A stretch of DNA of 64,000 nucleotides. It comes from a bacterium SCSIO 12741. GTDB taxonomy: Bacteria; Bacteroidota; Bacteroidia; Flavobacteriales_G; Salibacteraceae. Position 1 is the stretch's first letter. Every line of letters begins with the position of its first letter. Both the position numbers and the translations under genes were made by a program. Below are positions 55,180 to 58,908 of the stretch, piece by piece. The stretch is from positions 3,410,594-3,474,593 of the forward strand of contig CP073749.1 in assembly GCA_024398055.1 (NCBI GenBank), in the 5' to 3' direction. The notes below the pieces were generated by a model. It saw nothing but the letters and a program-made list of their open reading frames with translations. It was not told where the DNA came from and ran no database searches.

Positions 55180-55797
55180 CTATTGGGTGTATGGAGCGAA
55201 TTCTTTTTTGAGCTGGGTCAATTTCCTGGAAAGCTTTTCTCGATTTTTTTGAGTCTTGACCCACTTAGGCAAATTGGTAATCATAGAGTATTTAAAACGT
55301 TGATCATCCTCCCGAAGGGTGGATTCCACATATTCTTTGAGGTAATCCAAGTGTCGAAGATTATACACCCACAGCGTATGCTCCTTGAATGCCGTCTGTA
55401 GCCACAAGGGGAAGCCGAAATAAGGGTCCGTTGCCTCTCCTTGAAAATGAGGTAGCCATTGATTTTCGTAGGATCTTGTTGTTTGACAGGAGTCGCAGGT
55501 AACTTCGGATTTGGGGTATGGCTTTTTTGTCGGATCGGTGAGATTCGATATCGGACTTCCGCAATGCCCACAAGCTCGTTTTATAAAACCCACCCAGGAA
55601 CAAAACCATTTTTCATTATCCTTTTCGATAAAACCACAATGGCTGCAATGGCAAATGGATTTGGCATTTAGAACTGTGGGTACGATGTATTTCGGAAGTT
55701 CAGTTTTAACGATCGCAGGATTAGCGCACTTGGGGCAATTAACCCAAATTTCATCACTAAAAAAAGAAGTTGGATAGGGTGGTTTTGAAAATTTCAT
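55180..55797 (-). CDS. Cys-rich zinc-ribbon protein of unknown function
   Basis: 205 residues, soluble. Metal-binding Cys come in pairs: NCPKCANPA (about 20-24), CHCSHCGF (about 48-53), ACGHCGSPI (about 74-78) and TCDSCQTT (about 100-104), spaced like two or more zinc ribbons. The second half is helical and basic. No family could be named. It sits directly after the HExxH protein gene (17 nt), in the run under the Fur-like divergent promoter. Confidence 0.65.
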   Translation of the reverse strand: MKFSKPPYPTSFFSDEIWVNCPKCANPAIVKTELPKYIVPTVLNAKSICHCSHCGFIEKDNEKWFCSWVGFIKRACGHCGSPISNLTDPTKKPYPKSEVTCDSCQTTRSYENQWLPHFQGEATDPYFGFPLWLQTAFKEHTLWVYNLRHLDYLKEYVESTLREDDQRFKYSMITNLPKWVKTQKNREKLSRKLTQLKKEFAPYTQ

Positions 55798-55814
55798 GGC
55801 ATACTCAGTTTACA

Positions 55815-56414
55815 TTAAACCATCCCAAAAACCTCAAAAAAACGATTCCAGATTACCTGCTCGTATTTCAATGCGTAGTTCTCAGCATATTGTTCTCCCC
55901 GTGGAGCATTATCCACCCGGTCATGGGTACTCAGTCGGTCGTGGTGATGGCCCAACTCGTGTAAAAATATATGAAGCAATTGATAGGCCCGGATTTGATC
56001 TTCGCTAAAATGACACACCACTCCTGTTGCCTTGATTTCGAAAGGAACATGCAAACGTTCAAAGATGGCCTGGTGCTCCATAAAGTACGCTTTGTTCATG
56101 GACACGGTTTTGTCCTTTTCCCAAGCACAGATGGCTAACACACCGTTGCTATACCATCCATCTTCACCGCCTCCTGCCGCCAGTATCACGGCATCCAATT
56201 CTACCTGCAGTTCTTCCCAATTGGGTAGAATCTCGAGAAAGTTGAGGATATCTCGTTTTTTAAGAAAGTGCTTATAACCTTTACCTGGTTTCTCCTGATC
56301 AATCTGCAATTCTTTTTGCCGGGTGTTCCAGTAGTTTGGGGTAAGGTCGTGACGATTTTTCTTTTGTACTCGCCCGTCTTTAACTTTTGGGGTGGTTTTG
56401 CGGTGTGTCCTCAT
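55815..56414 (-). CDS. HExxH putative metalloprotease-like protein
   Basis: 199 residues, soluble, no signal peptide. The motif LHIFLHELGHHHDRLS (about 152-160) contains a full HExxH zinc site followed by HHD, and an acidic region further on (YAENYALKYEQ) could supply a third ligand. The N-terminal half is basic, then has ELDAVILAAGGGEDGWYSNG. It resembles small zincin-like proteins of unknown role. It lies between an HMA-like gene and a zinc-ribbon gene, suggesting a metal-related unit. Confidence 0.6.
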   Translation of the reverse strand: MRTHRKTTPKVKDGRVQKKNRHDLTPNYWNTRQKELQIDQEKPGKGYKHFLKKRDILNFLEILPNWEELQVELDAVILAAGGGEDGWYSNGVLAICAWEKDKTVSMNKAYFMEHQAIFERLHVPFEIKATGVVCHFSEDQIRAYQLLHIFLHELGHHHDRLSTHDRVDNAPRGEQYAENYALKYEQVIWNRFFEVFGMV

Positions 56415-56444
56415 AGCTCCGATACGGAATAGAGGATAAAACTA

Positions 56445-56690
56445 TTACGAATAGGCTTGATCTTCCATAATCTCGCAGTTAAATCCTTCTCGATTCACTT
56501 TTTTTTGAATTTCCAAAGGATCAATATCACGGCCTTCAATACGCAATACGGTATGTCCGGCAGGGTAGGGAAGTCCAGTTTCGTCAGGATCCAAATTGAT
56601 TTGCCACTCGGGGTAAGCCAGATGCAGATTCTTGGCCACAGTTTTTACATCCGCAGGATGGCGAATGTCGGTGATAAATACTTCAACCAT
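56445..56690 (-). CDS. HMA-like small protein lacking the CxxC site
   Basis: 81 residues. The order MVEVFITDIRHPADVKTVAKNL, WQINLDPDETG, HTVLRIEGRDIDPLEI resembles a heavy-metal-associated (ferredoxin-like) domain, but the usual metal-binding CxxC is replaced (the loop reads RHPADV); one Cys remains near the end (FNCEIM). It may be a binding partner rather than a metal carrier. It lies 18 nt after the flavoprotein gene on the same transcript. Confidence 0.6.
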   Translation of the reverse strand: MVEVFITDIRHPADVKTVAKNLHLAYPEWQINLDPDETGLPYPAGHTVLRIEGRDIDPLEIQKKVNREGFNCEIMEDQAYS

Positions 56691-56708
56691 AATCAGTGCG
56701 TGCTTGAT

Positions 56709-57704
56709 TTAAAAGGCGGCATTAGATAATTCCATGTTGATCACGGCTCCAACCATGTTGCCTGAAGCCACGGCGTTAGCCACCGAACGTAACCTTGAGC
56801 TGTTGTCTCCGCAGGCAAACACACCATCTACCGTGGTCTTTAGTATCCCATCTACTTCGATAAAGCCCTCATCGTTTAACATACATCCCAGTTTTTTAGG
56901 TATATCGGAGTGTTGAGTAAAGGGCACCGCGGCGTAGGTTGCTTCCAATTGTTCTTTGGAATGATCGGCGAAGACCAGGTTTTTGAGGTATCCGTTTTCG
57001 TGTTCGATTTCTACAATTTCTTTTTCCACTACGGGTATTCCATTGCGCTCCAATTGGGCTCTTTCTTCTGCATTGAATTCTGCCTTTCCTGAAGTGAAAA
57101 TGGTCAGATCTTGGGTCAGGTTTTTAGCCATAGGGGCAAGGTGCAATGCCCGTTCTCCGTTGGCAATGATTCCGGTTTTTTTGTTCCTGATCTCATAGCC
57201 ATGGCAATAGGGGCAATGAACGACGGAGATGCCCCAGCATTGGGCAAAACCTTTGATGGGCAGGAATTCATCCTTAATTCCAGTTGCGAAAACCAATTTC
57301 TGAGCGGAAAACTGCTCGCCTTTTTCGGTAATTATTTGAAAACCATGTGCGGTTTTTGTTCCCTTTACGGCTCGATCGTTTAGAAAGTGAACGGTGTCAT
57401 ATTTTTCTACCTGAGACTTGGCTTTTCCTGCAATTTCAGCTGGTTTTACTCCATCCTGGGTTAAAAAATTATGGGAGTGCGGGGTTTGCCGATTGCATGG
57501 TTTTCCGCTATCAATGACCAAAACCTTCCGTAACGAACGACCAAGGGTTAGTGCTGCAGAAAGACCGGAATAACTTCCTCCGATTATGATTATTTCGAAT
57601 TCTTTGGGGCTTTTCATAGGGGCATAAATTTTAAAAATGGGCCACGGAAGGGATAAGGCTAAACCAGTTAAACTGGCTTGTTTTATGGCATCTCTTCGTG
57701 TCAT
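56709..57704 (-). CDS. Thioredoxin reductase-like NAD(P)/FAD oxidoreductase with N-terminal signal
   Basis: 331 residues. The N-terminus MTRRDAIKQASLTGLALSLPW has a twin-arginine pair and hydrophobic core, so the flavoprotein may be exported folded. FAD motif IIIIGGSYSGLSAALTLGR, redox pair CPYC in VVHCPYCHGYE, second GGS-type NAD(P) region around TGIIANGERALHL and the C-terminal FAD-binding GVFACGDNS. Relatives reduce thioredoxin or bacillithiol disulfides; export would be unusual for these. It diverges from the Fur-like gene over a palindrome at 57715-57729. Confidence 0.85.
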   Translation of the reverse strand: MTRRDAIKQASLTGLALSLPWPIFKIYAPMKSPKEFEIIIIGGSYSGLSAALTLGRSLRKVLVIDSGKPCNRQTPHSHNFLTQDGVKPAEIAGKAKSQVEKYDTVHFLNDRAVKGTKTAHGFQIITEKGEQFSAQKLVFATGIKDEFLPIKGFAQCWGISVVHCPYCHGYEIRNKKTGIIANGERALHLAPMAKNLTQDLTIFTSGKAEFNAEERAQLERNGIPVVEKEIVEIEHENGYLKNLVFADHSKEQLEATYAAVPFTQHSDIPKKLGCMLNDEGFIEVDGILKTTVDGVFACGDNSSRLRSVANAVASGNMVGAVINMELSNAAF

Positions 57705-57714
57705 TCAATTTTAA

Positions 57715-57729
57715 TGCAACAATGTTGCA
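57715..57729. promoter_or_regulatory. Fur-family-type operator, box 1 (TGCAACA-A-TGTTGCA)
   Basis: A perfect 7-1-7 inverted repeat, the geometry of Fur/Zur/PerR sites. It lies 11 nt before the flavoprotein ATG at 57704, just downstream of a near-consensus -7 element (57743-57750, one mismatch). Confidence 0.65.
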
Positions 57730-57767
57730 ATAAGTTGTTCTGCGAAAATAGAATTTATTTGTATTAA

Positions 57768-57782
57768 TGCAATATATTCGCA
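57768..57782. promoter_or_regulatory. Fur-family-type operator, box 2 (degenerate)
   Basis: TGCAATATATTCGCA keeps the outer TGCAA and GCA of box 1 (10 of 15 positions). It lies downstream of a near-consensus -7 element (57754-57761) and 20 nt before the regulator start, so each divergent promoter has its own box. Confidence 0.45.
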
Positions 57783-57802
57783 ATAAGAATTGAAATCAGA
57801 TT

Positions 57803-58183
57803 TTGAAAAGGCGAAATACAGCAACAAAGGAGGCGGTACTCTCGGTGCTTCAGCACACTGATAAGGCCATGAGCCAGGCAGCCATTGAAAAGAAAGTAGG
57901 CATTGATATCAATCGGGCCACCATATATCGGGTGCTCAATCGGTTTTGTGAAGATGGTTTACTTCACCGAATTGTGGCAGACGACGGCAAGCAGTATTTT
58001 GCTTTATGCATGAAGTGTGATGATGATCAAGATCAACGTCCCAGGCATCATTTCCACTTTAGGTGTAGGGTGTGCGATACCATCGAATGCCTGCCCATTC
58101 CTGTTCACTTTACGCTTCCGGAAAAATACCTCGTGGAGAATGTAAACTGCGTCATTACCGGTGTCTGTAGAGATTGTTGTTAG
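57803..58183 (+). CDS. Fur family transcriptional repressor
   Basis: 126 residues; the TTG start is the only candidate in frame. Winged helix: ATKEAVLSVLQHTDKAMSQAAIEKKV, IDINRATIYRVLNRFCEDGLL. Metal-binding region: HHFHFRCRVCD, then a C-terminal CRDC, so a structural zinc site with two CxxC pairs and a His-rich sensing site. This favours a Zur- or PerR-like member over a plain iron Fur, but the metal is not certain. It diverges from a TrxR-like gene and is flanked by two 15-bp boxes. Its stop overlaps the next convergent gene. Confidence 0.9.
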   Translation: MKRRNTATKEAVLSVLQHTDKAMSQAAIEKKVGIDINRATIYRVLNRFCEDGLLHRIVADDGKQYFALCMKCDDDQDQRPRHHFHFRCRVCDTIECLPIPVHFTLPEKYLVENVNCVITGVCRDCC

Positions 58184-58908
58184 CCGGGTTTAACCGCTAC
58201 CAGCGTATGCATTCCTCGCATCAATTCGGAATGAGTAATCGCAAGACCTAATTCTTTAATCCTTTCTTCTACCTCGGCCGGAGCTACTCTAACCTTTTGG
58301 TAGGAGCTTACTTTCTGGATCCAACCACTCTCCGTTTTTTCATGGAGTAGGTCGGTAACCCTAACGGATTGATTCTGGTATTCCAGCAGGCAAGTCAGAA
58401 TTCGGGTATCGTCGCTTTTTACGGGGATGAATCTTTGCTCCCCTTTCAATTCATTCGAATAATCCCGGAAGGATAAAATCAAATGTCCGCCTTTGCTTAG
58501 CAGAGCATTACAATCTCCAATCAATTGATGGATTTCGGCTTTGTTTTCCAGATGGGTAAGGGTATCTCCACAACATGCAATTACCTCGGGTTGGTAGGCT
58601 TTCGATTGTGCAGCTTCCTTTATATCGCCCAGTACGGTCTTAATGGGTAAACCCTCCGAACGGTTCCTTAATTCCTGGAGTAACTGTTCATTAAAATCAA
58701 CCGCTATTACCTCGAACCCTAATTGACCAAGGGCCACACTTTGGATACCATGCCCAGCTCCCAGATCCAGGGCTTGTTTATTATGCTTAGGGCGAATGTG
58801 GAGTTGGTTAAGTAACTTCTCAAACTCGTGGCTTTTGGTTTCAAAGTCTCCGGCCATCCAGGAATAGAAATGGGCCAAATGGTGTTCGTAATGGTCTTTG
58901 GTATTCAT
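58180..58908 (-). CDS. Class I SAM-dependent methyltransferase
   Basis: 242 residues. Motif I ALDLGAGHGIQSVALGQLGFE, motif II VIAVDFNEQLLQEL, motif III CCGDTLTHL and post III GGHLILSFRDYS. The N-terminal YEHHLAHFYSWMAGDFETK is typical of a UbiE/COQ5-related group. Substrate unknown. It converges on the Fur-like gene with a 4-bp overlap of stop codons. Confidence 0.88.
   Translation of the reverse strand: MNTKDHYEHHLAHFYSWMAGDFETKSHEFEKLLNQLHIRPKHNKQALDLGAGHGIQSVALGQLGFEVIAVDFNEQLLQELRNRSEGLPIKTVLGDIKEAAQSKAYQPEVIACCGDTLTHLENKAEIHQLIGDCNALLSKGGHLILSFRDYSNELKGEQRFIPVKSDDTRILTCLLEYQNQSVRVTDLLHEKTESGWIQKVSSYQKVRVAPAEVEERIKELGLAITHSELMRGMHTLVAVKPG

What the first reader, a model, noticed from the sequence alone, without database searches (positions are those of the whole stretch)
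55180..57704. Four-gene run of metal/redox proteins under a Fur-like regulator
With gaps of 17-30 nt there follow a Tat-signal TrxR-like flavoprotein (CPYC), an HMA-like domain without its CxxC, an HExxH protein and a protein with four Cys pairs. Three of four have metal-binding features and the regulator is metal- or peroxide-responsive by family. This combination is not one I recognise as a known operon and could be a metal starvation or metal-protein repair set (inference).
Basis: partly seen in the sequence, partly recalled or inferred. Interest (0 to 1): 0.55.

Follow-up and report, generated by a model that had tools for sequence, protein, structure and literature searches.

The report
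Zinc-controlled dithiol oxidase operon
A probable zinc-sensing repressor sits back to back with a small operon led by an enzyme of the kind that disarms zinc-grabbing dithiol toxins, which suggests that these bacteria switch on an antidote when their zinc is being stolen.

Summary
The genes are there as described, but the four-gene set is not the unit. The conserved unit is regulator plus flavoprotein, sometimes with the HMA-fold gene.

The regulator is best read as Zur: relatives sit beside CobW, FolE, ZIP or MerC genes. Two palindromes in the divergent promoter match a box found upstream of those relatives; in this 5.1 Mb genome such sites (at most 1 mismatch) occur only here.

The flavoprotein is not a thioredoxin reductase. 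It scores with DepH, HlmI and GliT, has the CPYCHGYE motif and lacks the NADPH motif of the genome's own TrxB. In 395 sampled Bacteroidota genomes, 19 of 47 such genes lie within 3 kb of a Zur-like gene; 9 of the other 28 have an exact box upstream.

Pseudomonas DnoP, placed by its authors in the DepH group, is induced by zinc starvation and detoxifies gliotoxin-type chelators (PMC11317636). I therefore read this as a Zur-repressed, possibly Tat-exported, antidote to dithiol zinc chelators. The HExxH and zinc-ribbon genes look like local additions. Enzyme activity and zinc response are untested.

The parts
57803..58183 (+). Zur-like Fur-family repressor gene (126 aa)
   Evidence: PF01475 38.6 bits; relatives of 30-50% identity beside CobW, FolE, ZIP or MerC; near-invariant Cys69 and invariant His/Cys positions in 22 sequences
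57712..57732 (.). Zur-type box 1, TAATGCAACAATGTTGCAATA, 7 nt before the flavoprotein start codon
   Evidence: 0 mismatches to the consensus; only such site in the genome; its 15-nt core has no other site with 0 or 1 mismatch
57765..57785 (.). Zur-type box 2, TAATGCAATATATTCGCAATA, 53 bp from box 1, on the zur side
   Evidence: 1 mismatch; only 1-mismatch site in the genome; a two-box layout with 53-54 bp spacing also in L065 and L066
56709..57704 (-). DepH/DnoP-like FAD dithiol oxidase with twin-arginine N-terminus (331 aa)
   Evidence: PDB profile order: 3fbs, DepH, 4fk1, 4ntd (HlmI, name recalled), GliT, 7br0, then others; HCPYCHGYE kept, NADPH motif absent; RR N-terminus (relatives)
56445..56690 (-). 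HMA-fold protein without the CxxC loop (81 aa)
   Evidence: follows the oxidase also in L065, L066, L186; HMA fold; Pfam: no hit
55815..56414 (-). HExxH putative metallopeptidase (199 aa), accessory, not seen beside zur elsewhere
   Evidence: homologues found only in a Roseivirga MAG (78%), G105 (53%) and weakly G381; poor structure model
55180..55797 (-). two-zinc-ribbon-like protein, four CxxC (205 aa), accessory, not seen beside zur elsewhere
   Evidence: 18 of 385 genomes (own included); no zur, oxidase or box in the 14 homologue loci held; no Pfam family over cut-off

Best explanation
A Zur-type repressor, zinc-loaded when zinc is sufficient, binds two boxes in the shared promoter and silences itself and the operon. 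When zinc falls, for instance because a dithiol natural product (holomycin, thiolutin or gliotoxin type) chelates it, repression lifts. The flavoprotein, probably exported through Tat in this strain, then oxidises the chelator's two thiols back to the disulfide with O2 as acceptor, and the zinc is released. The HMA-fold protein may hold or pass on the metal. Shown: gene order, boxes and their rarity, enzyme family by score, active-site motif, absence of the NADPH motif, conservation. Inferred: zinc sensing, repression, export, substrate, roles of the other genes.
For: Zinc genes beside relatives of the regulator: CobW (L079, L083, L155, L156), FolE (L077, L087, L158), ZIP (L076), MerC in many. 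Box with at most 1 mismatch upstream of 30 of 34 zur-like genes, among them 10 of 10 loci fetched after the consensus was written, all one genus. Boxes are rare: 0-3 exact sites per genome in 10 genomes, reversed-pattern control 0 in all 10. Oxidase within 3 kb of a zur-like gene in 19 of 47 places (about 0.11 expected), 18 of them divergent (places); exact boxes upstream of 9 of the 28 unlinked oxidases, one of these ahead of a cobW-oxidase pair, and 2 more with 1 mismatch. In G203 and G330 the only exact box of the genome is at the oxidase. DepH-type sequence and CPYCHGYE, no NADPH motif against own TrxB. DnoP precedent: induced by zinc starvation, protects against dithiol chelators (PMC11317636: abstract, passages, sections 8, 10, 13). 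In L065 and L186 a methyltransferase with a TPMT match follows the HMA gene; S-methylation is the other described way to disarm dithiols (PMC5356443 passages).
Against: No expression or enzyme data. The closest relatives of the regulator (61-67%: L065-L068) have the oxidase but no recognised zinc gene beside them; CobW, FolE and ZIP lie beside relatives of only about 30-40% identity, so Zur is carried over through the shared box and shared oxidase. The PDB profile ranks a Fur entry among the Zurs (47.5 against 48.2 bits) and the single sequence favours Fur. 17 of 28 unlinked oxidases have no box at up to 1 mismatch. G098 and G312 have the oxidase but no exact box in the genome; the three boxes of G232 and two of three in G263 are not at an oxidase. 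Four of 34 zur-like genes lack the box. 13 of the 19 linked cases are one genus. No dithiol producer or exposure is known for this organism. [quoted passage not shown] The TPMT-like gene is missing at the window locus. 19 of the 23 readable relatives lack the Tat-like N-terminus (L156 uncertain).
Confidence: 0.55

Rival explanations
1. Zur control is right, but the oxidase acts on the cell's own dithiols: it oxidises low-molecular thiols or CxxC zinc sites (perhaps the zinc-ribbon protein of this operon) to release zinc for reuse.
For: The oxidase is tied to the zinc-type boxes in many Bacteroidota, and no toxin substrate is known there. In the window it shares a gene run with a four-CxxC protein. 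Fungal relatives oxidise glutathione, cysteine and DTT (PMC5721475 passages).
Against: The zinc-ribbon gene is not beside the oxidase in any of the 14 other loci held, about 1.5 kb each side. The one relative found described as zinc-starvation-induced, DnoP, protects against dithiol toxins (PMC11317636). A Tat-exported enzyme would not meet cytoplasmic zinc ribbons.
Confidence: 0.22
2. A mercury or soft-metal detoxification set: regulator, MerC-like and HMA-fold proteins, and a MerA-like flavoprotein.
For: MerC-like genes lie between zur and the oxidase in L081 and L148-L157. The HMA-fold model matches NmerA among others.
Against: The enzyme lacks the NADPH motif that a reductase needs, and MerA scores far under its cut-off (41.3 against 454.45 bits). 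CobW, FolE and ZIP neighbours of regulator relatives point to zinc. The HMA-like protein has no CxxC.
Confidence: 0.06
3. The regulator is a PerR or Fur type and the operon answers peroxide or iron.
For: Fur family; a Fur entry ranks second in the profile search, and single-sequence phmmer puts Fur entries first.
Against: Profile bits: FurB (zinc) 48.2, S. coelicolor 47.4, E. coli Zur 43.6, PerR 35.8 and 34.9. Zinc genes beside relatives. The genome has one other Fur-family gene, with a far stronger FUR match (102.7 bits).
Confidence: 0.07
4. One reading: the four genes form one metalloprotein-repair machine.
For: Short gaps and a shared strand.
Against: HExxH and zinc-ribbon homologues were not beside zur or the oxidase in the 17 loci held, and none of these loci has a box at up to 1 mismatch.
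Confidence: 0.04

Closest known systems
DnoP (PA4170) of Pseudomonas aeruginosa, PMC11317636
   Same: DepH-group FAD dithiol oxidase by the paper's tree; expression tied to zinc starvation; encoded by an organism that, per the paper, makes no disulfide natural products.
   Different: Here the gene is divergent from a Zur-like gene with two boxes between them, carries a Tat-like N-terminus, and is followed by an HMA-fold gene. The DnoP sequence and promoter were not compared here.
DepH, HlmI, GliT dithiol oxidases
   Same: CPYCHGYE shared with DepH and 4ntd (HlmI, name recalled) in the alignment; NADPH motif absent in the window family.
   Different: Those act in biosynthesis and self-protection of toxin producers (PMC11317636, PMC5721475 passages); here a zinc-type regulator lies beside the gene. 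Biosynthetic genes were not searched for systematically.
Zur regulons (COG0523, FolE, ZIP, TonB receptors)
   Same: Relatives of the regulator lie beside these genes and share a palindrome.
   Different: In this genome the only boxes with at most 1 mismatch are at this locus. The box is, as far as I recall, unlike the E. coli and Bacillus boxes.
GtmA-type dithiol S-methylation (PMC5356443)
   Same: L065, L185 and L186 have a SAM methyltransferase next to the HMA gene, with a TPMT match over cut-off in L065 and L186 (L185 not scanned).
   Different: Best Pfam match is generic Methyltransf_11; relation to GtmA not shown; absent from the window locus; L185 has no oxidase match in the 3.2 kb held.

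Membership tests
Flavin dithiol oxidase (DepH/HlmI/GliT/DnoP) | sequence closer to DepH, HlmI, GliT than to thioredoxin reductases | tested here: met
   profile A5: DepH 228, 4ntd (HlmI, recalled; its PDB name is 'Thioredoxin reductase') 186.5, GliT 176.8 bits; apart from 4fk1 (214.5, 'putative'), the next entry named thioredoxin reductase is 3cty, 118; no tree was made
Flavin dithiol oxidase (DepH/HlmI/GliT/DnoP) | CxxC followed by His (CPYCHGYE) | tested here: met
   present in window and in all 23 relatives that could be read (L157 not readable)
Flavin dithiol oxidase (DepH/HlmI/GliT/DnoP) | absence of NADPH-binding GxGxxA and the Arg-rich motif (feature recalled) | tested here: met
   ANGERA and no Arg motif, against GAGDTA and RKDHMR in own TrxB L208
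Flavin dithiol oxidase (DepH/HlmI/GliT/DnoP) | O2-dependent oxidation of dithiols to disulfides | not testable with these tools
   needs enzyme assay
Thioredoxin reductase (TIGR01292) | score over the curated cut-off | tested here: not met
   98.3 bits against 343.45; the genome's TrxB is elsewhere with 374.5
Zur | Fur-family fold | tested here: met
   PF01475 38.6 bits, cut-off 23.1
Zur | closer to Zur than to Fur or PerR | tested here: inconclusive
   profile: Zur-type entries 48.2, 47.4, 46.2, 43.6; Fur 47.5, 41.8 and lower; PerR 35.8 and 34.9; single sequence puts Fur first
Zur | Cys ligand in the sensing site ahead of the HxH, plus two structural Cys pairs (roles recalled) | tested here: met
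   C69 in at least 90%; H83, H85, C88, C91, C122, C125 invariant in 22 sequences
Zur | controls zinc-homeostasis genes through a palindromic box | tested here: inconclusive
   boxes and zinc-gene neighbours in relatives, but none of the closest relatives (L065-L068) has a recognised zinc gene beside it; binding not tested
Zur | zinc-dependent repression | not testable with these tools
   needs gel shift and expression data
HMA domain | HMA fold | tested here: met
   GolB Z 9.0, rmsd 1.6 over 64; HAH1 Z 9.0, model pLDDT 72; Foldseek alone not significant
HMA domain | CxxC metal loop and Pfam match | tested here: not met
   no CxxC; no Pfam HMA hit in 5 members at E <= 0.1
MerA mercuric reductase | score over the curated cut-off | tested here: not met
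   41.3 against 454.45 bits
Tat substrate | twin-arginine N-terminus and TatC in the genome | tested here: met
   TRRDAIK then hydrophobic stretch; similar in L158, L159, L161, L186; TatC 213.9 bits; export itself untested

The most novel reading that the evidence does not exclude
A widespread antidote system of Bacteroidota: a Zur-type repressor directly controls a dithiol oxidase, in some species exported by Tat and paired with a CxxC-less HMA carrier and, in relatives, a thiol methyltransferase. Zinc theft by dithiol antibiotics would itself trigger their re-oxidation in the periplasm. In this genome the whole detectable Zur regulon has shrunk to this one antidote locus.
Probability: 0.33. 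Interest if true: 0.78.

Novelty: new variant of a known kind. Interest (0 to 1): 0.6.

Why it matters
The DnoP paper left open how low zinc switches on a dithiol oxidase, and notes that all other characterised dithiol oxidases come from natural-product clusters. Here the enzyme family sits directly beside a Zur-like gene and its boxes in six genera, which makes the question testable in harmless laboratory flavobacteria. It also suggests that dithiol zinc chelators are a pressure common enough to be wired into the zinc response of Bacteroidota, and gives a short DNA signature by which to find such antidote genes.

Tried and rejected
Rejected: thioredoxin reductase (98.3 bits against a cut-off of 343.45); mercuric reductase; a conserved four-gene unit; a large Zur regulon in this genome (up to 2 mismatches: 13 sites against 10 in the control).

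Led nowhere: structure of the HExxH protein (pLDDT 51.9 with four sequences, not searched further); Pfam and NCBIfam for HExxH and HMA-like (one of four HExxH-family members hits Peptidase_M91 at E 0.0048, too weak to use); sigma-70 and terminator scans, under or at chance. Bacteroidota-type promoter motifs (recalled consensus) were only partly matched in the divergent region, so no placement of boxes over promoters is claimed. Foldseek alone gave no significant hit for the HMA model. No tree was made of regulator or oxidase. The box test failed in L084, L088, L082 and L089 (7, 5, 3, 2 mismatches). The P. aeruginosa dnoP gene and promoter were not looked at.

Left out of counts or uncertain: the two fragments of an internally deleted oxidase beside zur in G223 (L065) are not among the 47 places; the 47 are those's listing with at least 44% identity, and that listing and the one are capped, so 19 is a lower bound; several alignments report stop codons inside the aligned stretch. 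L157 could not be read by my script and L156 was read from an internal ATG. One of the 19 (G223, contig 13) is convergent, not divergent. Of 25 loci kept by the HMA search (38 of 365 genomes matched, mostly weakly) only L183 (G125), L184 (own) and L186 (G601) have the oxidase beside.

Papers: PMC11317636 abstract, passages and sections 8, 10, 13; PMC5721475, PMC5356443, PMC12288471, PMC9976891, PMC2770081, PMC3087516 passages only; all others seen as search listings. I saw no paper on a Zur-controlled dithiol oxidase in Bacteroidota in these listings, which show at most 15 papers each of an open-access library.

Full report
What is there. On the minus strand lie a flavoprotein (56709-57704), an 81-aa HMA-like protein (56445-56690), a 199-aa HELGH protein (55815-56414) and a 205-aa protein with four CxxC pairs (55180-55797). 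A Fur-family gene (57803-58183) diverges from them. The set has no sharp lower end, since a TfoX_N-like gene follows after 49 nt on the same strand. G+C of these genes (0.42-0.46) is near that of the window (0.436), so composition gives no sign of recent import.

The regulator. Pfam FUR scores 38.6 bits; no NCBIfam cut-off is reached. The genome search found one other Fur-family gene. A profile of 22 Bacteroidota relatives ranks M. tuberculosis FurB (zinc) first at 48.2 bits, with S. coelicolor 47.4 and E. coli Zur 43.6, but one Fur entry stands at 47.5, and the single sequence favours Fur, so sequence does not settle it. Context points to zinc: in loci of more distant relatives (about 30-40% identity) the gene lies beside CobW/COG0523 GTPases, GTP cyclohydrolase I, a ZIP transporter, an Nramp transporter and TonB-type receptors, and MerC-family genes are frequent also near those of 45-50%. 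The closest relatives (61-67%, L065-L068) have the oxidase but no recognised zinc gene beside them. I read the gene as Zur, through the shared box and the shared oxidase partner.

The boxes. The divergent region has a palindrome TAATGCAACAATGTTGCAATA (57712-57732) and a weaker copy 53 bp away (57765-57785). Similar palindromes stand upstream of many relatives. I wrote the consensus WAWYGCRAYWNWRTYGCRWTW from those and then tested it. 30 of 34 upstream regions have a site with at most one mismatch; this is partly circular for the first 24, but the 10 loci fetched afterwards, all of one genus, gave 10 of 10. In the own genome the only sites with 0 or 1 mismatch are the two at this locus; with up to 2 mismatches, counts are near the control (13 against 10). 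In ten other genomes exact sites number 0 to 3 and the reversed pattern gives 0 in all ten. Not every exact site is at an oxidase or zur: three in G232 and two of three in G263 are elsewhere, and G098 and G312 have none.

The flavoprotein. It is no thioredoxin reductase: TIGR01292 98.3 bits against a cut-off of 343.45, and the genome has a TrxB over the cut-off elsewhere. Closest solved structures by profile are 3fbs, DepH, 4fk1, 4ntd (HlmI; that name for the entry is recalled) and GliT, well ahead of the other thioredoxin reductase entries (3cty 118 bits). The active site HCPYCHGYE, with CPYCHGYE also in DepH and 4ntd, is present in the window and all 23 relatives that could be read. The NADPH GxGxxA and Arg motif of own TrxB are replaced (ANGERA, no Arg), which from recalled work on these enzymes is expected of an O2-using oxidase; O2 as acceptor of GliT is stated in PMC5721475 (passages). 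The window protein and those of L158, L159, L161 and L186 begin with a twin-arginine signal-like stretch (5 of 24 readable sequences); the others start near the FAD domain. TatC is in the genome.

Conservation. In 395 sampled Bacteroidota genomes there are 47 such oxidase places (at least 44% identity) in 45 genomes. 19 of 47 lie within 3 kb of a Zur-like gene listed, where about 0.11 would be expected by chance; 18 of the 19 are divergent; they span six genera, 13 of the 19 in one genus. Of the 28 unlinked ones, all examined, 9 have an exact box upstream: 8 within about 110 bp of the oxidase match and one (L164) 278 bp ahead of a cobW-oxidase pair. Two more have one with 1 mismatch, and 17 have none. 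In G203 and G330 the single exact box of the genome is at the oxidase. In one genus the order is zur, then divergently MerC, sometimes CobW, oxidase, TonB-like receptor. The HMA-like gene follows the oxidase in L065, L066 and L186, with a remnant in L160. In L065 and L186 a SAM methyltransferase comes next, best Pfam Methyltransf_11, with TPMT (PF05724) also over its cut-off in both.

The other two genes. The HExxH protein was found in 1 of 42 genomes of its order (own only), 3 of 395 of the phylum (own, G105, weakly G381) and, by a scan that finds close relatives only, one Roseivirga MAG at 78%; none of these three other loci has zur or the oxidase in the stretch held. The zinc-ribbon protein was found in 18 of 385 genomes, own included; 14 other loci were held (about 1.5 kb each side) and none had zur, the oxidase or a box. 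They are probably passengers or local recruits.

Precedent and mechanism. Dolan et al. 2024 (PMC11317636; abstract, passages and sections 8, 10 and 13 read) show that P. aeruginosa DnoP, a DepH-group dithiol oxidase, is the most induced gene under gliotoxin (313-fold), is induced by TPEN and suppressed by zinc, protects against several dithiol toxins, and that the signalling to dnoP is unresolved. The Bacteroidota pattern offers a direct answer for this phylum: the oxidase gene sits under the zinc-type repressor. Dithiol toxins chelate zinc once reduced, Zur loses its metal, the oxidase is made, and it closes the dithiol to a disulfide that no longer chelates. The TPMT-like gene in relatives would match the second described defence, S-methylation of dithiols (PMC5356443 passages), though relation to GtmA was not shown. 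Zinc sensing, export, substrate and the role of the HMA-fold protein remain inference.

Verdict. A known regulator family and a known enzyme family in an arrangement that I did not see described in the listings (open-access library only). New variant of a known kind, of fair interest because it gives a testable regulatory logic and a broader phylogenetic base to a defence that the paper shows in one species.

Noticed in passing
L065:4479-5093, L186:1739-2362, L185:1752-2372: A SAM methyltransferase (57-63% identical among the three; TPMT match over cut-off in the two scanned) directly follows the HMA-fold gene; in L065 and L186 this is part of the zur-oxidase cluster.
   Followed up: partly
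L065:5396-5878 and L158:3998-4996 (both G223): The zur-adjacent oxidase copy is internally deleted (about 177 aa frame), while an intact copy with an RR N-terminus and two 1-mismatch boxes lies on another contig near a second Fur-family gene and FolE.
   Followed up: partly
window 58180-58908: A methyltransferase gene (best scores to daptide and glycine/sarcosine N-methyltransferase models, under their cut-offs) converges on zur with a 4-nt overlap; no match to the TPMT-like one.
   Followed up: partly
L085:1317-3484 (G105): Near an HExxH homologue, a pair of frames (150 and 187 aa, the first excisionase-like by eye) appears twice in tandem on a 5.3 kb contig.
   Followed up: no
L175, L179 (G232): Three exact boxes stand within 1.7 kb of each other; the genes in L179 look, by eye, like a flavin monooxygenase and a DsrE-like protein rather than known zinc genes.
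   Followed up: no
L031:4284-6600: In a Roseivirga MAG the HExxH homologue lies 20 nt behind what look, by eye, like a histidine kinase and a LytTR-type response regulator.
   Followed up: no
L160:4941-5078 (G330): HMA-like match behind the oxidase with no open frame of 50 aa: apparent gene decay.
   Followed up: no
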